Below are positions 7,181 to 53,219 of a stretch of DNA of 64,000 bases, one piece after another (position 1 is the stretch's first letter; each line of letters begins with the position of its first letter). Source of the DNA: Chloroflexi bacterium TSY. Its GTDB lineage: Bacteria; Chloroflexota; Anaerolineae; Caldilineales; Caldilineaceae. Under the pieces are notes generated by a model that had not been told where the DNA came from, searched no databases, and worked only from the letters and a program-made list of their open reading frames with translations. A program made the position numbers and the translations under genes. The stretch spans positions 1 through 64,000 of the forward strand of contig JAHBNG010000033.1 in the NCBI GenBank assembly GCA_019217005.1. The letters are read 5' to 3'.

Positions 7181-7684
7181 AACACCCTTCTTTTTATCGT
7201 CGGTAAAATGAATTTATATATAGTTATTTTATTTTAACACTGTTCAATTGATTTGTCAAGAGGGGTTTTCGAGATGGCAGAGGATTCAGCGTGCAGGATT
7301 AGAGTGAACGGACTTGACAGAGCTATAAAGTATAATTTCCTAGCTATCAGTAGATAAAAGGGTGGCGAGAGTTCAGGTAGCCGAACTGGTCGAACCTTAA
7401 CGTTGGATTTTTCGCCACATCTATAAAAACCCCGACAAGAGCGAATGATTTGTTGACCAACCTAACTCTACTGATAACCCGCTGATTTTGTGCGCGAGGC
7501 TTCTAATTCGCTGTTTTCTGAATTCGTTGTCGTTTGTCTGGAGTGTTTTGGATCAGGAATCAAGCAAGGTACAATAAACAGTATTATATTGGGACACACC
7601 CCCGATACAACACGGATTAAATCCTGAAAATTCTACAGATCTGTGTCCAAAAAGTTTTTTGGGTTTACTTAATAATGTACCTAA
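7181..7684. other. non-coding leader between the tetR operon and an IS701 element
   Basis: No gene is evident. The stretch next to tetR is strongly AT-rich and probably holds the operon promoter. TTGGAT (7548-7553) and TACAAT (7570-7575), spaced 16 bases, could be a plus-strand promoter that once served the PhyH gene, now cut off by the IS at 7685. The last 30 bases are the original leader of that gene. Weak evidence throughout. Confidence 0.3.
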
Positions 7685-9293
7685 TACTACTGTGCATCAA
7701 GTAAAGGCTCGATAATGTTCGATTTTTGCACAAGATAATGCGAGCGTTTAGCGGAAACAAGACGACGTTGCTTGTAGCGAAGGCGCTCGATAGTCTCAGC
7801 GAGTGTCAAGACAGGTTTAGGCAGAACGGCATGGAGAAGTTCAACAACCTGTGGCAAAGTGAGAGCGGGGGCATCATATTTGAGGAAAAACTGAGAACGA
7901 GCCAAGAAACCAAAGGCCAAAATGACTAAGGTCATATGATGATGCCAACCGAGCCAACTGCGAGTTTCATATTCGTTGAGTCCGAGAAACTGCTTGGCTT
8001 GTTCAAAATGGTTTCAATGGGCCAACGCAAAGCAGAAACAGTGGCGAAGTCATCCAAGGAAGTCTCAAGGGGTGCATTGGAGAGAAAGTATTGCAGAGAG
8101 CAATCGGGATTGCGGCGGACGATGAGCCAGAGAGCAGAACCGGGGAGCCCATTGCGGACAGAGACAATGCGGCGACAAGCAATGGAAGCAACGATGAAGC
8201 CCTTGGAGCCCTCTTTGAGAACATGCTGTTGCCACTCATGCTCCTGGAAGGTGTCAGCGAGTTGAGCAACGGTGAGAGGCGTAGGTTCACCAGGCCGGAC
8301 GCGGAGCTTGAGCTTTGCGCCCGCGTCCAGATGATGCGGGCAGATAGGTCTGGGGGCTGGAGGTCCAGACACGAGTCTCTTTGGGCACTTCAGCAAAGTA
8401 GCTGTAAGCGGTTTGGCCATCAATGCAGTCAAGCAGATGAGTATCTTTGCCAAAGGCTTCATCCATAGTGATCCAGCGGATGGGCAACGCACCCAGGGCG
8501 TGCGTCTGCTCAATCATGGACCAAGCCAATTCATTTTTTGTTTGGAAGGTCAGGTCAGTGGGAAGACCGGTTTTGTACCGCTTCTCTGCATACTCATCAC
8601 TAAACCATTCTTGGGGGATATACAACCGACAGTTCAGTAAGGTATAGCCATGAGAGCTATTATATCCCAGGAAGACTCCGGCTTGACAGTTGGCGATCTT
8701 GCCCAGTTCGCCACACCGCTGCCGCTTGACGCCCACTGACTCTTCTCCTTGCTTGGGAATGTCGCTCCCATCCAGGAGTAAGACGCCATTTGCGTCTCCC
8801 AACAACTCACCTGTCTGTCGAGTATGTTCCGCCAGCATCGCTTCACCGCTCCAGCGGCTCTGACCCACAAAGCTTTGCAGGGGGCGTACACCCGATTCTC
8901 CTACTGTCGCCAGCGCGATGTTCTCGGCCGATTTGCGTTTGATTTCGGGGTCTAACAAGCCTCGCATGTAGTGGTACGCATGCTCTCTCTGAGCCACATG
9001 GCTGAAGTATGGACTATATATGGCATGATACTCCTGGAGTTGGTCGGCCAGTGCCGCCAGTTGCTCTTCTGTCAGTTCCAGCAGCGGCGGGCTTTCCAGT
9101 TGGCTGTAGTCATATTGATTGACTGCTTGAGCAAGTTTCATCTTGATTTCCTTTCATCGAAGACTGCTTCATTTTATTGGCTCTTCAGTCTATCTCATTT
9201 TTCCTTTGCATTCTGTTTGCGTTTTGTTAGCAATATGCCCAGAAATATAACGAATTTCCTTTGTGTTTCACAATATATTGCTGCACAGTAGTA
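7685..9293 (-). mobile_element. IS701-family insertion sequence, complete ends
   Basis: The element is 1609 bp. Its ends are perfect 12-bp inverted repeats (TACTACTGTGCA at 7685-7696 and the complement at 9282-9293). Both sides carry CTAA (7681-7684 and 9294-9297), matching the YTAR target duplication known for IS701 elements. The encoded transposase is IS701-like but frameshifted. Removing the element and one CTAA places the former upstream leader directly before GGAGAGG and the ATG of the dioxygenase at 9310, so the IS landed just 5' of that gene's ribosome-binding site. Confidence 0.93.
7687..9141 (-). pseudogene. IS701-family DDE transposase, two frameshifts
   Basis: The first frame (9141 to about 8310) has the family landmarks: LLDGSDIPKQGEESVG containing the first catalytic Asp, then CGELGKIANCQAGVFLGY. 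After SGRGRKAQ the reading continues in a second frame (VRPGEPTPLTVAQLAD to SALRWPIET), and near 8015 it moves to a third (FEQAKQFLGLNEYETRSW, then HHHMTLVILAFGFL) ending at 7687 inside the terminal repeat. RWPIE carries the catalytic Glu region. Two indels therefore separate otherwise well-preserved segments. The copy should be inactive unless complemented in trans, yet its ends are intact and could still be mobilised. Confidence 0.9.
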
Positions 9294-9309
9294 CTAAGGA
9301 GAGGCAAGA

Positions 9310-19636: not shown

Positions 19637-19678
19637 AAACAGTCCGTAAAAGGTCGTAGATCTTTCTACGGACTGTTT
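19637..19678 (+). terminator. 12-bp hairpin downstream of the giant hydrolase gene
   Basis: AAACAGTCCGTA (19637-19648) pairs exactly with 19667-19678. The loop itself holds a small palindrome around CGTAGATCTTTCTACG. It lies about 105 bases after the stop codon and just before the repeat array. It may terminate the transcript or be a minimal form of the element at 20225, whose ends it resembles (GTAAAAGGTCGTAG). Confidence 0.4.
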
Positions 19679-19839
19679 ATTCTATAGATCTGTCGTAGCG
19701 CAAACAGCTTGTTTGCGCATGCTTCGTCTACCTAGAATCATCCAAGCTGAGCAAAGAAGCGGATCTGCGAGCCAATCAGTCAACCGACTGCATTCGGAAC
19801 AAGGTACCTGTTCCGTCGAAGAGCATGAACAAACAGGCT
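19675..19839. repeat. 165-bp long repeat, unit 1
   Basis: The unit recurs at 20060-20224 with only a few differences, and its first ~42 bases recur at 20440. It contains a perfect 9-bp hairpin with 3-base loop (GCGCAAACA, 19698-19718) and a near-palindrome around GGTACC, and ends in AAACAGGCT. No reading frame is conserved between units. Units 1 and 2 are each followed by a different inverted-repeat element at the terminal AGGCT. Confidence 0.8.
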
Positions 19840-20054
19840 CAGTAGATCCAAATTTCAGGTTTTGAGAGAGAATTCTGGCTAAACAGTTGACATAAATACA
19901 AATTTGCCGGTCGATATCTAGTTTTTGCGTTAGATTTGGGCGATTTTCAGATATGAAATAGGTTGTTTTCTGTAACCGAAATCTGAATAAATGACTCCAA
20001 AATCCCTGCAATCTCGACTGAAAATCGCCAAAAACGCCAAATTTGGATCTACTG
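19840..20054. mobile_element. 215-bp MITE family B, copy 1
   Basis: The ends are CAGTAGATCCAAATTT and its complement, and the flanks are AGGCT on both sides (19835-19839, 20055-20059). A second copy in opposite orientation lies at 52707-52921; by eye the two differ at one position in 215. No transposase is encoded. Here it sits at the end of repeat unit 1; removing it with one AGGCT gives the same joint seen in undisturbed copies (AAACAGGCTGTTT). Confidence 0.88.
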
Positions 20055-20059
20055 AGGCT

Positions 20060-20224
20060 GTTTATTCTACAGATCTGTCGTAGCGCAAACAGCTTGTTTG
20101 CGCATGCTTCGTCTACCTAGAATCATCCAAGCTGAGCAAAGAAGCGGGTCTGCGAGCCAACCGGTCAACCAACTGCATTCGAAACAAGGTACCTGTTCCG
20201 TCGAAGAGCATGAACAAACAGGCT
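20060..20224. repeat. 165-bp long repeat, unit 2
   Basis: Near-identical to 19675-19839, in the same orientation and of the same length. It keeps the internal hairpin and the AAACAGGCT end. It is followed by a different palindromic element at 20225. Confidence 0.8.
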
Positions 20225-20434
20225 GTAGAAAGTCGTAGGACTTTCCCCCCTTTTGGTCACAAAGTCTTACCCCCCTTTCAGAGTAAGGTAGTGAGCAACT
20301 AGGATTCGTACCATAAATTGCTCGACTAAATACGGGCTTGTTCAGGTCAGTTCTCGTCGCACCGACTTGAAGCTCTCGAGCAGGTGGGGTAAGACTTCGT
20401 GACTAGATCGGGGTAAAGTCCTACGACCATTTAC
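20225..20434. mobile_element. 210-bp long-armed palindromic element flanked by AGGCT
   Basis: The ends GTAGAAAGTCGTAGGACTTT and the complement at 20415-20434 match at 17 of 20 positions. An inner pair (20256-20274 with 20386-20403, GTCAC.AAGTCTTACCCC) extends the stem. AGGCT flanks both sides (20220-20224, 20435-20439). No gene inside. Probably a MITE unrelated to family B that used the same target sequence. Confidence 0.65.
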
Positions 20435-20439
20435 AGGCT

Positions 20440-20481
20440 GTTTGTTCTACAGATCTGTCGTAACGCAAACAGCTTGTTTGC
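20440..20481. repeat. 165-bp repeat, truncated unit 3
   Basis: About 42 bases match the start of units 1 and 2, including most of the AAACAGCTTGTTT hairpin, and then similarity stops. The remaining bases to 20561 hold no recognisable feature and lie just beyond the stop of the convergent sulfatase pseudogene. Confidence 0.65.
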
Positions 20482-20561
20482 TCAGCCTCACCAACAACTA
20501 GTCTTGCCATTTGGACGAAACAATGATTAAGGCCAGAAACAGGAAGTTTATCGATAATCCA

Positions 20562-22454: not shown

Positions 22455-24096
22455 TCAAGACTTCATTTTAGCTTCAAAATAGTTCATTGTTTCGTTGATG
22501 TTTAAACTATGTTTACCATCATCGGATCGTAATACATTATCCCCCGCAATAACGTTAGCCTCTTCGTCTACATGAACCGGACTCGGTTGTTCAAAGAGGA
22601 CCCAATTTAGTAGACTCTGACGTAAAGCAAGAATCTCATCTTGGTAAGCTGGCTCGTCATAAAGATTGACCATTTCCAGTGGATCTGCTGCCAAATCGAA
22701 AAATTGTGATTGTTCCGGATTGGCGCAAAGAAGTAGCTTACGCGTCTGTGTACGCACCATGTATTCGGAGCCTCGCCCTGCTTCGGCAAAGACGACATCT
22801 CTTTGTTGACTCTCATCGAGCAGATCCATACCGGCAAAGGTCTTTGGAATCTCGCAGTCTGCGCAATTGAGCATTGTTGGTCCCAGGTCCGTACTGTTGA
22901 CGAATCGATTGCTCACCTGATCTACCTGAATCTGACCGGGGTATTTTACAATGAGCGGCACCTTGATCAGTGGATCGTACATGTAGTTCCCTTTGAGCAA
23001 GAGATGGTGAAAACCCAGGTACTCCCCATGATCGCTGTTGTAGACGATTAGCGTATTCTCATAAAGGCCGCGCGCTTTTAGTGTCGCAATCATACGCCCA
23101 ACATGGTGGTCGATCTGTGAGATTGTGGCGTAATAATAAGCCATTCCCTGACGTAGTTGGGCTTCGGTCATTGCTTCGTATGAGAAATAGCCAGGATGGT
23201 AGGCGAGATCCTGTGGCAGAGGTTCGCAGATCCATCCTGGTAGCAACGTCAGCACATTGGGATCATACATTTCGCTCCAGGGCGCGGGCGGATCAAAGGG
23301 ATGATGAGGCTTAATAAAGCTTGCCATCAGCAAGTTTGGTTGATTGACATCCCAGGATTGCAGCGCTTCGACGGCCCGATCACCGATCCAAGTGGTTGAA
23401 TGATGAGCTTCATCCAAGTTCGATTCCATTGCACCGAAAGAACACCAATATTCCTCTGGCGCATTCTGACGATATTGGCGCTCCTGATCAATCAGATCAA
23501 TGGTATCTGCCAATCCCTCTGAACGCAACCAACGATGGTAGTCATCTTCATAACGGCCTGGACCATTCTGTTCAGCCAGCACCATCTCATCGAAACCCAC
23601 ATCCAAATAGGTAGGGGTAAAGTGCATTTTGCCCACAGCTTTGGTGCGATAGCCTGCCTTCTGCAATTCACGCGGAAAGGTCGGTAAGCCAGCCGGTAAC
23701 GTGGCATAGTTGCTACCCGCCAGATGTTGGCGTACGTAAAGACTGGTCAAAAACGAATAACGGGAGGGCGTACAGACGGGATAGGGGCAAAAGCTATTCG
23801 TGTAGCGAATCCCATTGGCAGCAAGACCGTCGATATAAGGTGTCTGTACATCTGCGTTTCCATAGGCACCAATGGGGGTGGTTCAGAATTAGGTTTACAC
23901 TTTTGATACATAGATAAAAATCTATATGAGGTCATTTTCTGCCTGAGCATGGCTCAAAGTAGAAAATATAAACATCTTTTCTCTTTGCAAAAATGTAAAC
24001 CTAATTGTCCGCCTAAAATGAACCACCCCCACCAATGCAGTCAAAACGATGCTGGTCGGCTTGGATGATCAGAATATTGGGGCGGCTGTTATTCAT
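22455..24096 (-). pseudogene. type I sulfatase interrupted by a 155-bp MITE
   Basis: From the ATG at 24096 the protein begins MNNSRPNILIIQADQHRFDC, is cut after codon 22 by the element at 23875-24029, and resumes with GAYGNADVQTPYIDG. Removing the element and one 8-bp duplication gives one frame of 492 residues. That product has all the sulfatase signals: CTPSR with Cys54 as the formylglycine precursor, SDHGEYLG with the second metal site, and a Lys in LLLKGNY. It would cleave sulfate esters from a polysaccharide or small molecule. The damage is a single recent insertion; otherwise the gene is intact. The 3' fragment alone (from 23750) lacks the catalytic Cys. Confidence 0.92.
23875..24029. 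mobile_element. 155-bp MITE family C, copy 1
   Basis: The terminal repeats are GGGGTGGTTCA (23875-) and its complement ending at 24029. An 8-bp target duplication, CACCAATG, is present at 23867-23874 and 24030-24037. The copy at 41501-41655 has the same length, lies in opposite orientation and differs at about two positions. It has no coding capacity. Internal segments ATTAGGTTTACA and TGTAAACCTAAT also pair. Confidence 0.93.
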
Positions 24097-24340: not shown

Positions 24341-26155
24341 ATGGATTTGATACCTATGTATATCTACCGTACTTTGCTACCCATTCTCTTTTTACTGTTC
24401 TTATTGTTACAAATTGTGACCAATACATCTCAAAAAGCAGTACTCGGCGCACCGCTGGCTCAAGGCGGTGAGGGTACCTGGGATGAGCGCTTTACATTGC
24501 CCGGTATGGAGTGAGATACGCTGACGAATTTGGCCTTTGTGAGCGCGCTGACCAGAGATGGAGACGACCTATATGCCGTCGGTCGTTTTACCACTGGCAG
24601 CCAGCATGAGGCCAATTATGTGGGGCGATGGGATGGGCGACGCTGGCACGCTTTAGGGGAGGGGCTGGATGAGCGCGCCTTTGCTGTTGCTGTGGAAGGC
24701 AATCGAGTCTATGTTGGTGGCCAGTTTACAAAAGCGGCCAACAAAACCGTCAATGGCATTGCGATGTGGGATGGCGCGCAATGGACCGCGTTGGGCAACA
24801 GTCAGACTATGGGTGTAGCTGTGGATGACCGCAACAAGCCAGAGTGGGTCAACACGATTGCTGTAGATGGGAACAATGTCTATATTGGTGGTCAGTTTGC
24901 CAGTGTGGATGGCGTACGGGCCCAGAATCTTGCCATGTGGGACGGCGCTCGTTGGTCCGCGGTTGGCGGTGGGACGGATGCAGAGGTAGAAGTGTTGCTA
25001 TTTCACGATGGGACACTCTATGTAGGTGGCGACTTTACACAGGTGGGGGCGTTGAATGCAAATGGGATTGCCACGTGGGATGGCGCAGCGTGGTCCCCAT
25101 TGGGGCAAGGGGTGGAGAGCAACTTTGATGGAACGACGGTCTACACCATCATGGTCGATGATTCCGTGAACGATGGGGATGTCTATGTGGGTGGTTATTT
25201 TCAGCGCGCTGGCGGTCGAGTTGCTAACTCAGTGGCGAGATGGGACGGCGCTCAGTGGCACTCGCTGGACACAGGAGCATTAATCGATGATGAATTTCTG
25301 GGCAGAGTCTATAGTCTGTCGAGGAACAACGGCAAAATCTATGCCGGTGGTGATTTTAACTCTGTAGGCAATGTTGGTGCACACAACATTGCCGCATGGG
25401 ATGGTAACGAATGGAACCTTCTTGGCGGAACAGATGGCCCCGTTTTTACTGTGGCTGCACGCCCGGGCAGAGGTGTCTACCTTGGCGGAAATTTTGAAAA
25501 ATCGGGCGGGCTCTATACATACAACATTGCCCAATTCAATGATCCTGGCTGGCGCGCCTTCGGGCAGGGCGTTGCCAATCAGACCATCGCGGGGACCGTC
25601 CATGCTGCGGCACGTGATGCACAAAACCAGCTATTTGTGGGTGGCTTTATCAGGCGTGTAGGTGGTTTACCTGTTTCCCATATCGCCATGTGGGATGGCG
25701 AGACCTGGTCAGCATTGGGGGACGGCGTCAATGGGCGTGTTCGTACAATTGCTGTCGATGGGGATAATGTTTATGTGGGTGGCGATTTTTCACAGGCTGG
25801 AGGAATTAGCGCCAAGAGCATTGCCGTGTGGAACAAGGTGGAGGAAACGTGGTCCCCGTTGGGGAGTGGTACCAATGATGATGTACATGTGTTGTTTGTT
25901 CACAATGGCTGGCTCTATGCGGGTGGCAAATTTACCAGCGCGGGCACTGTCAGCTCTATGTATGTTGCACGTTGGGATGGAGCAAGGTGGCATCGTCTAG
26001 GCCAGCAACCCTATTCTTTTGTTTGTCGTAGCTCGATAGGCTCGGTAACGCATGGTGTGCGTGACATTGCCGTCATGGGCAGTCGGATTTTTTTTGCCGG
26101 TCAATTTATCCGGATGAGCTTTGACGAGACCTGTATTAACTTTACTTTCTGGTAA
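24341..26155 (+). pseudogene. secreted beta-propeller repeat protein with premature TGA, 3' end cut by IS
   Basis: The ATG at 24341 gives a signal peptide (LLPILFLLFLLLQIVT). At codon 58 an in-frame TGA (24512-24514) follows LPGME, and the same frame then runs to 26155 with about ten repeats of 45-50 residues carrying VYVGGQFT and NGIAMWDGAQWTALG patterns. Repeats of this kind form extracellular beta-propellers, often for binding. The final stop codon (26153-26155) lies inside the terminal repeat of the IS starting at 26139, so the natural C-terminus is lost as well. TGA is used as a normal stop by neighbouring genes, so recoding is unlikely. Confidence 0.83.
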
Positions 26156-27637
26156 AAGAAAAGAGATGAGGTGAGAAATGTGACAAAAAGCGGTTAGCAG
26201 TTCATCCTAAAGGTAGAGAACCCAAAAAGGAGGAAGGAATGCTAACCGCGCCAGAAATAACTATAGCAGTACTGATGAATGTATTGCAAGTAACGCCGAT
26301 GGGAACAAACGTAAATGTAATGCGTCTGATGTGGGCAATGCTGAATGGGTCGTTTCTGAAAAGTCGAGGAGCAATCCATAGCGCATTGAAAGAAAGCGGG
26401 TTTGAAGATGAGGAGCTCCGGCGAAGCTGGTGGAGCTTTCGATATGGATCATGGGATATCACAAGTCTGCTGGGGTCGTGGCAAGAAGAAGTGGAAAGGG
26501 GGAATGGGAGGCAAAAAAGTTAGAAGGGTACCGAGTGAAAAGCATAGATATCACAGGGTTCTGGCGACCGAAGCTGCAAGGGAAAGTGAACCGACTCTAT
26601 AACTCAACGGCTCGTCGGGCATTGCCCGCGCTCATCTTTGGAGTGATGATAAGCTCGGGGGAGATAGGCGGGAAGCGAGTGCCACTGCTCAAGGCAATCA
26701 TGAGATGCACGGTTGGAACAAAGGAAAGTGAGTTTCGGAAAAAGCTGCTGACAGAGACGAAGAAATCACTGGAGTCAGACGAAGTGGCGGTGGTCGATGC
26801 CGGGTTTACAATCAGAGAAATGCTAGAAAGCGGCATAGACCGATTTGTCCTGCGGGAAGCGATTAACTGCACAGTGCGCCGCAATGAGTTCCCCAAACGC
26901 AAAGAAAAAGGCAGACCACCTGAATATGGTGATATTGTGCGACCGCTCTCGCAGCTATAAGGAAAGCGACTCGAGGCTACAACTCCGGACTCGTCTGGTC
27001 GCTTTCTCTATAGTGGTCGCCTGATTTGCTATCAAGCATGGCACAATCTCGTCCCCAGAACAACCAAGGTGGATACAGCCAACCGTACCTACTCGATTTA
27101 CGTCATTCAGGATCCGGCCTACAACACACCTTTGGTTTTGGCGACCGTTATGACTTTGCAGCCTGAAACCATTTATCTTGTCTACCTGGAACGCTGGCCT
27201 GTTGAACCTCCCCCCTTGGCTTCCAAGCAGATGATTGGCTTACATCGTCAATTTGTTCATGCCGATGAGGCTTGTTTCCGCTTACCTGAACTGGGGCTGC
27301 TGGCTGGCAATCTTCTTTCCCATTTAGCCGCTTCTCTTCCTCCCATACCGACTGGCTACTGGGATCGAGAGCCTCAATCCACTCCCGGCAGGCTGCGCCG
27401 TGTTCTCTCGAGTGCTCTTTTTCCAACTCCTGACCAACTCGACCCTGACTTTCGGAAAAAGGCCTCGGTTTCACACCATTTCCCTAAAGGCGTTCTCGCT
27501 CATCGCCGCCTCAATGCCGCTGCTTAAACTAGCCGAGCACTATTTTTACATTTTATCCCGTTTTTTCAGGGTGGATTCTTTTTTCCGCCCCTTTCGGTTT
27601 GCCCTTTGTCACTCAAGCCTTTACCAGAAAGTAAAGT
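26139..27637 (+). mobile_element. insertion sequence with 18-bp terminal repeats
   Basis: ACTTTACTTTCTGGTAAA (26139-26156) is perfectly complementary to 27620-27637, giving a 1499-bp element. It holds one DDE-type transposase gene on the plus strand, now broken. I see no convincing target duplication, so one side may have been rearranged after insertion. It ends 145 bases before the TauD-like gene and truncates the beta-propeller gene on its left. Confidence 0.85.
26239..27527 (+). pseudogene. DDE transposase, frameshift and premature stop
   Basis: AGGAAGGA precedes the ATG at 26239. The first frame (LTAPEITIAVLMNVLQ to LLGSWQEEVE) shifts near 26500 into the frame carrying KSIDITGFWRP (first Asp candidate) and VAVVDAGFTIREML (second Asp). 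A TAA at 26958-26960 interrupts, and the same frame continues as RLEATTPDSSGRF to ERWPVEPPPLASKQM, which holds the catalytic Glu candidate (RWPVE). The pattern places it in the IS4-like clan of DDE transposases; I cannot name the family. One indel and one nonsense change make it inactive. Confidence 0.78.
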
Positions 27638-39762: not shown

Positions 39763-42577
39763 GTGAAATTCTGTTTACTTGGTTCGTTTACGATCTCACT
39801 TGACGGTGAGCAGGTCGTGTCGCTCAAAGGAAAGGATGCGCAAAGGCTCTTCGCCTATCTTCTGCTTCATCCCCAGCAAGCACACCTACGCAGCTATCTG
39901 GTGGGCCTATTCTGGCCTGACCTTCCGGAAGTGAAGACCCGTCGCCGTTTGACTCGAGCGCTTAGTACAATCCGCAGTCAGCCACGACTGAGTTCTCTTC
40001 TTTATGCAGATAGCCATACGATCGAGCTGTCCTTGTCTGATCAAGTCTGGATCGACTACTATGCGTTTCATCAACTGGTTGAACCCCATCTACACAACAA
40101 TCCTCCTCAACATGAGGCAGCAGATGAACTTGCAAAGGCCATTGAACTCTATCAAGGACATCTTCTGCCTGGTCTTTATGATGATTGGTTGCTGCCACTA
40201 CAGCAGAGAACCGAACAACTTTGTCGCGTAGCCCTCGCACGACTCCAAAGCATCCATAAAAGCAAGGGGCAGTATCAATCTGCACTGACCTATGCACTTC
40301 GTTTGAGTCAGATAGACTCGTTCGACGAGGCCAATCAGCGCGAAATTATGCGATTGTATATGGCCCTAGCAGAACCTCAAGCTGCTCAAAAACAATACCG
40401 CACTTATTGCCAGAATTTACGCTCAGAAATAGGAGGCGAACCGGAAACAGAAACGCAAGCCCTCTTCCAACAGCTAGAGCAGCATATCGTACAAAATCAA
40501 CTTGCCCAAGTTCATGATGTCAAAGGACATCTGCCACAGCCTCCTCATCCTTTGCCACCTTTGATCTACGGAGACCTCTCGAAACTTCCGTTGGTTGGGC
40601 GTGAGGCTGAGCGACAACAGCTGCTGACACATCTACACATGCTCTTTGATGATGAACTGGCGATGAGTGGGATCATTTTGGTAGATGGGAACGCAGGGGT
40701 CGGCAAGACGCGGCTTGTGCAAGCAGTTATGCAAGATTTAGCTTGGCGTGGCGCACAAGTTGTTTGGCACGACGCCGTGATCGATGCTCCAAATATGCCT
40801 TATGCTCCATATGTGCATGTACTAGAAGCTGGACTGACCGAATTGCAAGCGAGGCAGCTCGCAAATCTAATCGCTCCTCAGTGGCTTCAAGATCTCACCC
40901 AACTGTTGCCCTGTGTAGAACAATGGATAGCTAATTTTCAACCCTCTGTAGAACGCGAAAGTTTACATTTAGAAGAGCTGCGGTTTGTTGAAGCATATGC
41001 CCAAATTTTGATCACTTGGTCGCAACTGACCCCTCTAATCCTCGTTTTTGACAATCTTGCTCATTGGACTGCTGACTGTCTGCATGTGCTCAATCTCCTT
41101 ATGCATCGAGTGATGGAAGCCCCCCTGATTCTTGTTGGAATCTACGAAAAAGAAGTGGCCCGCGAGAAACAGGGGATCTGGGAACACATTCAACGACTGG
41201 TAGACATTCACCTCTTCACCCAAATGACAGTGATGCCATTAACAGAACAAGCAACCGCTGCGCTGATCCGAACCACGCTGGCAACAGTCACCCCCATGCC
41301 AGGTTTTGAAGCGCGCATCTATCAGGAAACAGCGGGCGAACCTCTTGTCATCCTCGAATTGATATCGGCGCTTTATCGTGAGGAGCTGTTGATATACAGC
41401 GAGGATAGCCGATGGCATACACCACTTGAGGAAGAGGGGTCAATGGAGATGATGCTTCCTGATTCCTCGTCCTTGCAATCGCTTTTTGAAAAGAGATTCG
41501 GGGGTGGTTCATTTTAGGCGGACAATTAGGTTTACATTTTTGCAAAGAGAAAAGATGTTTATATTTTCTAATTTGAGCCATGCTCAGGCAGAAAATGACC
41601 TCATATAGATTTTTGTCTATGTATCAAAAGTGTAAACCTAATTCTGAACCACCCCGAGATTCGCGCTATTTACGACAGATGAAAGAACGATCTTAAATTG
41701 TGCAGTCATTTGGGGGATTCGTTTTGATGTCGCTCGAGTTGTAGAGTTGGCACAGCAACCGGAGGATAAGGTTTTGGCTATCCTTGCTCAGTTTGAGGAT
41801 GTTGGTGTAATTGAAGCGCGTACACCAGGCTATCTATTTCGACAGAATCTCTTTCGCCAGACAGTTTATGCGACGATGGACAGCAACGTGCGTTGTAACC
41901 TTCACCAATGCGCCTTCCGTTTGCTAATATGTGATCAGAAGACACCATCGATCAAACTATTTCATCATGCGATTCGTGGAGAATTGTGGGCTGAGGCAGT
42001 TCGTTATGCCATGCAGGCGGCAGAAGAAATGAAAGAGAGCTATGCATATGAGACTGCATTATCTCATTTAGCACAAGCATACGAACTTCTCGACACATAT
42101 GTGCTGTTCAGTGATGACCAACAGGCGCGGCTTCGCGACGAGGTTCTGGCCAGTCAGCAGGTATTACAAACGGAAATATTGTCTCGCAAACAGATGGTAC
42201 CCCCGGCTGAGAACGACAATGAGCTTCCCCAGACAGCCCATACGCCACCTACTCCGCGTAAAAAGGCCGAAACTCTCACAATCTTGCTAGCCAAAGAGAG
42301 TGCCCCAGCCTCTGGACGTGCTCTGCGCAATAATGAAAAACAAACGGTAACTTGGACGCTGCATTGCCCAGAAGACGCGACCATTCAAGGCAAAAGAGCA
42401 TTGCGCCAACATCGACTCATGCGCTTGGTTCAAGAAGCCCAAGACCAGGGGGCCATCCCTACCGTAGAACAACTAGCAGCAGCACTTGGTGTCAGTGACA
42501 AAACCATCCAGCGCGATCTCCGACAATTACGGCAGCAAGACGTGTATCTTTCCACCCGCGGCTCACGCGAACAATAG
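39763..42577 (+). pseudogene. BTAD/AAA transcriptional regulator interrupted by a 155-bp MITE
   Basis: The GTG at 39763 (MKFCLLGSF) is preferred to a TTG at 39673. Order: OmpR/SARP-like winged helix (residues about 1-90), BTAD tetratricopeptide domain (about 95-245), AAA ATPase with Walker A GNAGVGKT (309-316), long helical region, and a C-terminal DeoR/DUF1670-like helix-turn-helix (LAAALGVSDKTIQRDLRQL). At about codon 579, after EKRF, the MITE at 41501-41655 introduces a stop. Removing it with one GAGATTCG gives a single 883-residue frame (EKRFALFTTDERTIL). It is a signal-integrating activator; its place inside a peptide-transport cluster suggests control of that cluster, but no target is proven. 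Confidence 0.9.
41501..41655. mobile_element. 155-bp MITE family C, copy 2
   Basis: The ends are GGGGTGGTTCA and complement, with a perfect 8-bp duplication GAGATTCG at 41493-41500 and 41656-41663. Same length as copy 1 (23875-24029) and inverted relative to it, with about 2 differences. Inserted in the regulator gene. Confidence 0.93.
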
Positions 42578-44904: not shown

Positions 44905-45907
44905 ATGGATAATAGACAATTGACTGAATTATTGCTACAAGTCAACAATCTCCAAACCCACTTCTTTCTCGATGAAGGGATCGTACGCGCCGTCGATGGC
45001 GTTAGCTTTCAAGTACAGCGAGGCCAGACGCTGGGCGTATTGGGAGAGAGTGGCTGTGGTAAATCGGTCACGGGCTATTCGATCCTGCGGTTGGTTCGCG
45101 CACCAGGGCAGATTGTCGGAGGCGAGATCTGGTTTTACAATGGCATCGATCACCATCACATGGGGAATGAGAGCACAATCAGTTCCGAGGATCCAGACAC
45201 AAACGGTGCCATTGATCTGGCTGTCTGCGATCCCTTTGGTCATCAAATTCGCCGAGTGCGTGGAGCCGAGATTGCCATGATCTTTCAAGAGCCGATGACC
45301 TCGTTGGATCCCGTCTATACCATTGGTGATCGAGATGCTGCGGCGTGTAGGTCTCCCTCAGCCCGAAGAATTTGTCGATAAGTATCCTCACCAACTATCG
45401 GGTGGCATGCGCCAACGGGTGATGATCGCCATGGCGCTTATCCTGCGCCCTCGTCTGCTGATTGCGGATGAACCGACCACCGCGCTGGATGTAACCACTG
45501 AAGCCCAGATTCTAGAATTGCTCAAAGATCTGCAAGAGGAATTGGGCATGGCCATCCTATTTGTGACGCACGACTTGGGCGTGATTGCGGAGATGGCGCA
45601 GGAAGTTATCGTCATGTATCTGGGCAGAGTAGTGGAGCAGGCCGATATCAAAACGCTTTTTCGAGACTCCAAGCACCCTTATACTCAGGCATTGATGCGC
45701 TCTGTGCCACGCTTGGGTGATAGAGAACGTAGCCGTCTCAAAACGATTGAGGGCATGGTTCCTACACCGAGCGATATTCCCAACGGGTGCCCTTTTCATC
45801 CACGCTGTTCCGAAGCGATTCCAGGTATATGTGATGTGCGAGAGCCGCCCGTTGTTGATTTTGGCAAGGGGCATTGGGCACGCTGTGTGTTATACGAGAT
45901 AGGGTAG
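44905..45907 (+). pseudogene. oligopeptide ABC ATPase (DppD/OppD-like), internal deletion with frameshift
   Basis: Frame 1 (44905-45381) carries Walker A GESGCGKS (residues 47-54) and Q-loop IFQEPMTSLDPVYTIGD, then loses homology. Frame 2 (to 45907) resumes at VIEMLRRVGLPQP and has signature LSGGMRQR, Walker [13 protein letters not shown] and the oligopeptide C-terminal zone (NGCPFHPRC). In the family about 20 residues lie between TIGDQ and IEMLRRVG; these are missing here and the frame is lost. The deletion separates the two halves of the ATP site. Confidence 0.9.
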
Positions 45908-51259: not shown

Positions 51260-53219
51260 ATGATAAACATTGATGAGCGAATGAAGGACTTAGTTGCGCA
51301 GGCACCTGATATTTGGCAGTTAGACGCCTGTGGGGTTACCCGCACTGGACGGACAATTCCCTTTCTGTTACACCGCTCTGCCCATCGAACCACGACCCAT
51401 CAGAGAAAGGTCATTTTGATTGGTGGGTTGTCAGGATTGTCCGAAGACGTAGAATTGGCGCTGCAAGCACTGAAGACGTATAGCACAGGTTCTGCTCAGC
51501 TGCTCGCTCGTGTCGAGTTAAGCGCCGCACCTTGCTGCAATCCAGATGGACTGGCCTCGGGCACCGTGCCTTCCGAGCAGGCACGAGATAATTCTGCATC
51601 AGAAAACGGCGCCGATCGCAATCCAAGCATCGAATACCCGCCAAAGGGTGGTTTTTTCTATGCCCCAATCAATCCAGAAGCTCACTATCTCTGGCGATGG
51701 ATCAGCTTTCAGTCACCCGATCTGGTCTTGGAAGTTCGTGCGGGCGAGATCACAATCTGGGAGGTATCCACGCCGCTTTTGAGTCACATCCCCCAATTAT
51801 CTGCCGATTTGAACGCATCCGCGTTGCCAAGCGATGATTCTTTGCTTGGTGCCTTGGCGGTGGGAACACCAAATGACCTGCCTCCAGTTTCTTGTCTCAG
51901 GTTAACCTGTTCCGCTGACGCTTTGGAAACAGAGTTCAATAGATTGTGGTCAATCTTATTACAGCCAACGACTGACAATCATTCCGCGGTGCGTCGTGCG
52001 CTGGAAGATCGCGCATCCCGTTCTCCATTGGCGATTTCCCATTTGCTTGCGTCAACCTATGGCTATCAACTCGATCCAATTGTCTACACACAAGGCGTTG
52101 CCATCAGCGGACGCTTACGGTTGGCAAAACTGGATCCGACTGGACCAAATCCTGTACCGGATATCGTCACCTTGGTCGAACCGTGTATGACCAAATTGGG
52201 AGAACTCTTTGGTGGTCAAGATGGTGGCGCAAACTTGGCAGGTTTGGTCTGGGCCGATGAGCTAGCTGCTGCGACTGGCGACAATCGCTACGCTGATCTA
52301 TTGATCCTGACTGCTGACCGCTATGCAACCTCTCACGATAATGGTGTGCCAATACCATCGGATCCTGATTATCGCGTAGAGGATATGTTCTTCAGCGGGA
52401 CTGTGCTGGGACGTGCATTCCAGTTGACTGGCAACGAAGCGTACCTGAACATCCAAACGCAATTTCTGCTGAATGCCAACGTTCAACAAGAAGATGGACT
52501 CTTCTGGCACGCCAGATCGGTGCCCTTTTATTGGGGGCGCGGCAATGGTTTTGCCGCCTTGGGCTTTACCGAAACACTTACCTACTTGCCCGCCGCTCAC
52601 CCCGACAGAACAGCCTTGGTCGCAATCCATCTTCTCCATTTGGATGCGCTCTGCCGAACGCAACACCCAAGCGGTATGTGGCGACAAGTGATCGACTTTC
52701 CAGGCTCAGTAGATCCAAATTTGGCGTTTTTGGCTATTTTCAGTCGAGATTGCAGGGATTTTGGAGTCATTTATTCAGATTTCGGTTACAGAAAACAACC
52801 TATTTCATATCTGAAAATCGCCCAAATCTAACGCAAAAACTAGATATCGACCGGCAAATTTGTATTTATGTCAACTGTTTAGCCAGAATTCTCTCTCAAA
52901 ACCTGAAATTTGGATCTACTGAGGCTCCTACTTGGAGATGTCCGCCACCTGTATGATTGGCTACGCTATGGCCCGCGGAATGCGGATGGGCTGGCTCGAT
53001 GCAAGCTACCGAGACGCCCTAATGCAAGCGTGGCGCGGCGTCGCCATGCGGCTCGACGACGATGGTGGATTGGTTGATACCTGTACTGGCACCGGTCCTC
53101 AGCAAAGCCTACGTGACTACTTAGATCGACCAGCCATCTTCGGACCTGATGAGCGAGGCGGTGCATTGGCTCTCTGGTTTGCTGTTGAGATGGAGTATTT
53201 CTTGCGAGAATATGGCTAA
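51260..53219 (+). pseudogene. GH88/GH105-type hydrolase with carboxypeptidase-like N-terminus, interrupted by a MITE
   Basis: The restored protein has 579 residues. Residues about 1-240 resemble an M14 peptidase core (VILIGGLSGLSEDVELALQA, AAPCCNPDG), probably without activity. Residues about 270-579 are an unsaturated uronyl/rhamnogalacturonyl hydrolase domain of the GH88/105 (alpha/alpha)6 barrel type: DYRVEDMFFSGTVLGRA, FYWGRGNGFAALGFTETL, and SGMWRQVIDFPGS/YLEMSATCMIGYA, the last split by the element at 52707. It removes unsaturated sugars left by polysaccharide lyases. The signature motif around the catalytic site is thus cut after codon 482; without insertion the gene is intact. Confidence 0.88.
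52707..52921. mobile_element. 215-bp MITE family B, copy 2
   Basis: Ends CAGTAGATCCAAATTT and complement; AGGCT on both sides (52702-52706, 52922-52926). It is inverted relative to copy 1 at 19840-20054 with one visible difference in 215. Removing it plus one AGGCT joins the hydrolase codons as P-G-S-Y-L-E in frame. Confidence 0.93.

What the first reader, a model, noticed from the sequence alone, without database searches (positions are those of the whole stretch)
41493..41663. Second copy of the same 155-bp MITE disrupts a large BTAD/AAA regulator
Same ends and length, opposite orientation, about 2 differences from copy 1, with its own perfect 8-bp duplication GAGATTCG. Removal restores a single 883-residue frame. 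Two near-identical copies in two genes imply recent mobility and a source of transposase acting in trans.
Basis: seen in the sequence. Interest (0 to 1): 0.78.

Follow-up and report, generated by a model that had tools for sequence, protein, structure and literature searches.

The report
Small mobile element splits two genes
A 155-letter stowaway DNA element with no gene of its own has jumped into two genes of a Chloroflexota bacterium, and its footprint turns up in a third gene of Chloroflexi bacterium TSY; it is a new example of an ordinary kind of mobile element, and the enzyme that moves it was not found.

Summary
Window 41501-41655 is a 155-bp element with perfect 11-bp inverted ends (GGGGTGGTTCA) between exact 8-bp duplications, GAGATTCG. 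A second copy at 23875-24029, in the opposite orientation, has its own 8-bp duplication, CACCAATG, and differs at 2 of 155 positions. Removing the element from the BTAD/AAA gene reopens one 883-residue frame; three homologues (52-57% identical) run straight through the site. Copy 1 splits a sulfatase gene. A third insertion was found: a 79-aa protein of 'Chloroflexi bacterium TSY' ends in 35 residues identical to the copy-1 element's reading frame. This is a MITE, a non-autonomous transposon presumably moved by a transposase acting in trans. The parent was not found: no whole genome is held for the window, and the patterns and searches used on species genomes, viral contigs, plasmids and phages gave no related element. 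An IS1595-type parent is a guess. New member of a known kind. A second, unrelated 215-bp MITE-like family splits a GH88-family gene in the same window.

The parts
41501..41655 (+). MITE copy 2, 155 bp, no complete gene
41493..41500 (.). left 8-bp target-site duplication GAGATTCG of copy 2
41656..41663 (.). right 8-bp target-site duplication GAGATTCG of copy 2
41501..41511 (+). left terminal inverted repeat GGGGTGGTTCA of copy 2
41645..41655 (-). right terminal inverted repeat GGGGTGGTTCA of copy 2
41524..41542 (+). left inner repeat AATTAGGTTTACATTTTTG, 12 nt from the tip
   Evidence: 18 of 19 positions match the right inner repeat
41625..41643 (-). right inner repeat AATTAGGTTTACACTTTTG, 1 nt from the tip
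23875..24029 (-). MITE copy 1, 155 bp, 2 differences from copy 2
23867..23874 (.). 8-bp target-site duplication CACCAATG of copy 1 (low-coordinate side)
24030..24037 (.). 8-bp target-site duplication CACCAATG of copy 1 (high-coordinate side)
39763..41500 (+). BTAD/AAA_16 part of the split regulator; in the split state the frame stops inside the element at 41515-41517
41664..42577 (+). C-terminal part of the split regulator (DUF1670 / HTH_DeoR region)
24030..24096 (-). N-terminal stub (about 22 codons) of the sulfatase gene split by copy 1
   Evidence: no Pfam match of its own
22455..23874 (-). remainder of the sulfatase gene (Sulfatase, SGSH_C)

Best explanation
A MITE. The 155-bp unit appears to hold only transposase-recognition ends: an 11-bp GGGGTGGTTCA tip plus an inner AATTAGGTTTACA repeat at each end. 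A DDE-type transposase made elsewhere in the genome by an insertion sequence with the same ends cuts the unit at the GGGG tips and joins it to target DNA cut with an 8-base stagger, which gives the 8-bp duplications. Shown here: ends, duplications, near-identical copies at separate sites, empty sites in homologues of one host gene, and a protein that records a third insertion. Inferred: movement in trans, the DDE chemistry, the roles of tip and inner repeat, and the parent. Effect: each insertion adds 163 bp (not a multiple of 3) and the host reading frame ends inside the element, so the regulator is separated from its C-terminal part and the sulfatase from its N-terminal start.
For: Two copies with 153 of 155 identical positions, perfect ends and distinct perfect 8-bp duplications. 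Frames reopen on removal. P0001-P0003 (57, 53, 52% identical) are continuous across the regulator site. Joined, the sulfatase matches the Pfam Sulfatase model over positions 1-300 of 301 (E 1.3e-51); the piece behind the element alone matches 17-300 (E 1.3e-47). Third insertion: P0121, Chloroflexi bacterium TSY, 35 of 35 tail residues equal to copy 1 and 34 of 35 to copy 2. Hairpin-forming, z about -7. Both split genes have no other stop in frame, so the insertions look recent.
Against: No autonomous element with these ends was found. Only two copies are seen as DNA; the third is known only from a protein, so its right part and its target duplication are unread. A second peptide of the element (minus strand) found no protein at all. 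The window's own genome could not be searched.
Confidence: 0.94

Rival explanations
1. A narrower version: the parent is an IS1595-family element of the IS1016 type or a near group, which supplies the transposase.
For: ISApl4 (IS1016 group of IS1595) has GGGGCTGTACTAGA ends and 8-bp repeats (PMC12561309 passages). IS1595 members usually have 8-bp duplications, and the related Merlin elements have GG tips and 8- or 9-bp duplications (PMC8101967 passages). Against GGGGTGGTTCA, 7 of the first 10 letters agree by eye.
Against: Of 30 IS1595 transposase loci from genomes of the phylum of G001 (the genome of a Planctomycetota MAG), 8 gave an end/duplication pair and none has a GGGG tip. Other families also make 8-bp duplications (recalled; two ISL3 pairs). 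No parent seen.
Confidence: 0.3
2. The unit is kept for an RNA or regulatory role (hairpin RNA, terminator, promoter) rather than being a mobile element.
For: Strong hairpin. One promoter-like match on the minus strand at 41636-41609, against 0.7 expected in shuffles.
Against: Both copies break coding frames; no Rfam match at gathering threshold in the window and no terminator-like site in 41450-41750. The predicted central fold is rearranged between the two copies while the ends stay fixed. The target duplications are not explained.
Confidence: 0.03
3. Old, fixed insertions inherited by a whole lineage.
For: Only a few copies known; DNA of close relatives could not be read.
Against: Three regulator homologues lack the insertion, though at 52-57% identity they are distant. 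Duplications are perfect and host frames otherwise open.
Confidence: 0.05

Closest known systems
Bacterial MITEs in general (example seen only in a search listing: MITEAba12, PMC6382973)
   Same: short, non-autonomous, IS-derived element
   Different: host differs; ends and interior were not compared; no sequence relative of the present unit was found in the collections searched
IS1595 family, IS1016 group (ISApl4; PMC12561309, passages read)
   Same: GGGG tip and 8-bp duplication
   Different: the unit has no transposase; the tip agrees only in part (GGGGCTGTACTAGA against GGGGTGGTTCA); no parent seen
164-bp palindromic unit in a Planctomycetota MAG (L002 674-837)
   Same: GGGGTGGTTCAG tips on both ends, similar length
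   Different: different interior and no 8-bp duplication by eye; no second paired copy among the 5 matches in that genome

Membership tests
MITE (non-autonomous DNA transposon) | short element without its own transposase gene | tested here: met
   155 bp; longest stretch open in one frame within it is about 41 codons
MITE (non-autonomous DNA transposon) | terminal inverted repeats | tested here: met
   11 of 11 bp perfect, plus inner repeat 18 of 19
MITE (non-autonomous DNA transposon) | target-site duplication of fixed length | tested here: met
   8 bp exact at 2 of 2 DNA copies
MITE (non-autonomous DNA transposon) | several near-identical copies at unrelated sites | tested here: met
   2 in the window, 1 inferred from protein P0121
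MITE (non-autonomous DNA transposon) | shares ends with an autonomous element | tested here: inconclusive
   no parent found; the host genome is not held
IS1595 family | 8-bp target duplication and GG tip | tested here: met
   family description from passages (GG tip stated there for Merlin relatives)
IS1595 family | DDE_Tnp_IS1595 transposase with the same ends | not testable with these tools
   no parent sequence; in other genomes 0 of 8 resolved IS1595 end pairs (from 30 loci) resemble the tip

The most novel reading that the evidence does not exclude
The GGGGTGGTTCA elements belong to an undescribed insertion-sequence family limited to a sponge-associated Chloroflexota lineage. Each end has a cleavage tip and an inner binding repeat, set 12 nt apart on the left and 1 nt apart on the right. 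The 11-nt difference is about one helical turn, so it could force pairing of one left with one right end.
Probability: 0.12. Interest if true: 0.45.

Novelty: new member of a known kind. Interest (0 to 1): 0.3.

Why it matters
It documents a recently mobile, gene-breaking element in a poorly sampled Chloroflexota lineage, with ready-made markers (empty and filled sites) for strain comparison. With the second family it suggests that short non-autonomous elements are a source of gene loss in this genome. It does not change how MITEs are understood.

Tried and rejected
Other copies. GGGGTGGTTCA paired at 140-170 bp gave 2 stretches in genome contigs and 1 in viral contigs; read by eye, none shares the interior. 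Single-end and inner-repeat patterns in viral contigs gave 0, 0 and 1 stretch; in the last (L160) the 501 bases read show no paired end. Plasmids and phages: no match at E 0.01. A minus-strand peptide of the element found no homologue. Parent in the window: remnants at about 7682-9296 (clear IS701-family match) and 26139-27637 (weak IS701-family match, below its cut-off) have different ends; rejected.

End survey. Five transposase families, 149 genomes of the phylum of G001 each; 150 loci taken; a best end pair was reported for 39 of 150 (8 IS1595, 12 DDE_Tnp_1, 1 IS256, 12 IS1182-type, 6 ISL3). Some pairs are probably chance, and two places are counted under two families. Best agreement with the tip is 7 of 11 (one locus); the others reach 6 or less. 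The tip itself, with up to 1 mismatch, occurs 5 times in those loci, once exactly (L076, an IS256 locus), in no opposed pair. A relaxed rerun of the 30 IS1595 loci printed at most three pairs a locus; none starts GGGG. The 12-mer GGGGTGGTTCAG in 294 genomes: 146 have a match; the list of places was cut, and in the part shown I saw by eye no opposed pair close together on one contig (the known pair of L002 is not in that part). A PF13546 search of the L002 genome had no match. Both variable positions are unpaired in the fold of copy 2 but paired in that of copy 1, so no case for RNA structure was made.

Literature. Searches listed no paper that by title or start of abstract is about this element; two lists were cut (20 of 30, 20 of 106), and the library lacks most subscription journals.

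A mend made on checking: the first Pfam scan of the sulfatase piece used an ORF that starts late, so its match from position 58 is not the effect of the element; one search is the fair comparison.

Full report
What is there. Window 41501-41655 is a 155-bp unit that begins GGGGTGGTTCA and ends with its reverse complement. It is flanked on both sides by GAGATTCG. The same unit, inverted, lies at 23875-24029 between two copies of CACCAATG. The copies differ at positions 71 and 115 only. Within the window the perfect 11-mer tip occurs only at these four ends. The unit is AT-rich, 35% G+C against 50% for the window.

Anatomy. Behind the 11-bp tip lies a second inverted repeat, AATTAGGTTTACA, one variable base and TTTTG (18 of 19 positions match). 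It starts 12 nt after the tip on the left and 1 nt after it on the right. That the tip is the cleavage site and the inner repeat the binding site is suggested by general knowledge of DDE elements (recalled), not shown here. The strand folds into a long hairpin (z -7.2 RNA, -7.3 DNA). The centre is predicted to fold differently in the two copies while the ends stay the same, which fits selection on DNA ends rather than on an RNA.

Host genes. Copy 2 cuts a regulator with BTAD and AAA_16 domains from its C-terminal DUF1670/HTH part. The split frame stops at 41515-41517. Taking out the unit and one duplication leaves 883 residues from GTG 39763 without an internal stop. The three closest proteins in the large protein set (P0001 57%, P0002 53%, P0003 52% identical over 95, 95 and 99% of the query) carry the BTAD, AAA_16 and DUF1670 domains in one chain and run through the site. 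Copy 1 cuts a sulfatase about 22 codons after its likely start. The joined protein matches the Pfam Sulfatase model over positions 1-300 of 301 (E 1.3e-51); the whole piece behind the element matches 17-300 (E 1.3e-47), and the 22-residue stub gives no match of its own. So the break is close to the start of the domain.

A third insertion. The peptide read through the first 105 bases of the element in frame 1 was used as a query inside a window ORF. One candidate came back: P0121, 79 aa, hypothetical protein KFU94_64745 of Chloroflexi bacterium TSY, on a contig of 36,068 bp. Its last 35 residues equal the copy-1 translation exactly and that of copy 2 in 34 of 35. Its first 44 residues are not from either host gene here: pairwise comparison of the whole protein gave only chance-level matches to one and none to the other. 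A weak Pfam match, below the cut-off, is to a FitA-like ribbon-helix-helix (E 0.0069). So a near-identical unit, at least over its left two thirds, sits in a third gene. A second peptide, from the minus strand, found nothing. TSY is an unclassified Chloroflexota. A conference abstract describes filamentous microbiota 'from TSY', a yellow sponge, with the Chloroflexi member 'Poriflexus aureus' (passage, PMC7024214); other papers place that bacterium in Theonella swinhoei chemotype Y (passage, PMC10227082) and give its genome as about 14 Mbp (passage, PMC12858407). That the TSY genome record is that symbiont, and that the window is from it or close kin, is my inference and was not tested. The window's own regulator fragment is not among the 120 of 122 rows shown.

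No whole genome is held for the window, and no Chloroflexota genome could be used as a centre. It would miss copies with a mutated tip or another length. Viral contigs, plasmids and phages gave nothing related.

Parent. Unknown. The GGGG tip and 8-bp duplication are shared with ISApl4 of the IS1016 group of IS1595. But in another phylum none of the 8 resolved IS1595 end pairs (of 30 loci), and none of the 39 end pairs found in 150 loci of five families, resembles the tip well; the best agrees in 7 of 11 letters. I put IS1595 at 0.3.

Age. Two differences in 155, perfect duplications, host frames otherwise open and empty sites in regulator homologues all point to recent insertion. No rate is known, so no date is given.

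A wider picture. The window also holds a second MITE-like family: 215 bp, CAGTAGATCC ends, copies at 19840-20054 and 52707-52921 with 1 difference in 215 and AGGCT on both sides of each. The second copy splits a gene with a Glyco_hydro_88 match. Thus in 64 kb three genes are split by two kinds of short element, and two transposon remnants, one clearly and one weakly IS701-like, lie in the same window.

Verdict. It is a new member of a known kind.

Noticed in passing
window 19840-20054 and 52707-52921: Second MITE-like family: 215 bp, CAGTAGATCCAAATTT ends, inverted relative to each other, 1 difference in 215, AGGCT on both sides of each copy; the second copy splits a GH88-family gene (51260-53219). 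No paired-end match in viral contigs.
   Followed up: partly
window 19650-20484: Three diverged repeats around TTCTACAGATCTGTCGTAGCGCAAACAGCTTGTTTGCGCA, spaced 385 and 380 nt; one 215-bp element sits inside this array.
   Followed up: no
window 7682-9296: Broken IS701-family transposase (two ORFs) with 19-nt, 89% complementary ends around TACTACTGTGCA.
   Followed up: partly
window 26139-27637: Degraded element with perfect 18-bp inverted ends ACTTTACTTTCTGGTAAA and a weak IS701-family match.
   Followed up: partly
L002 674-837: 164-bp palindromic unit with GGGGTGGTTCAGGACC ends in a Planctomycetota MAG; single paired copy in that genome, no 8-bp duplication by eye.
   Followed up: partly
window 44905-45907: An ABC-transporter ATPase appears, from the translations, split into two overlapping ORFs (44905-45381 and 45323-45907), perhaps by a frameshift.
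   Followed up: no
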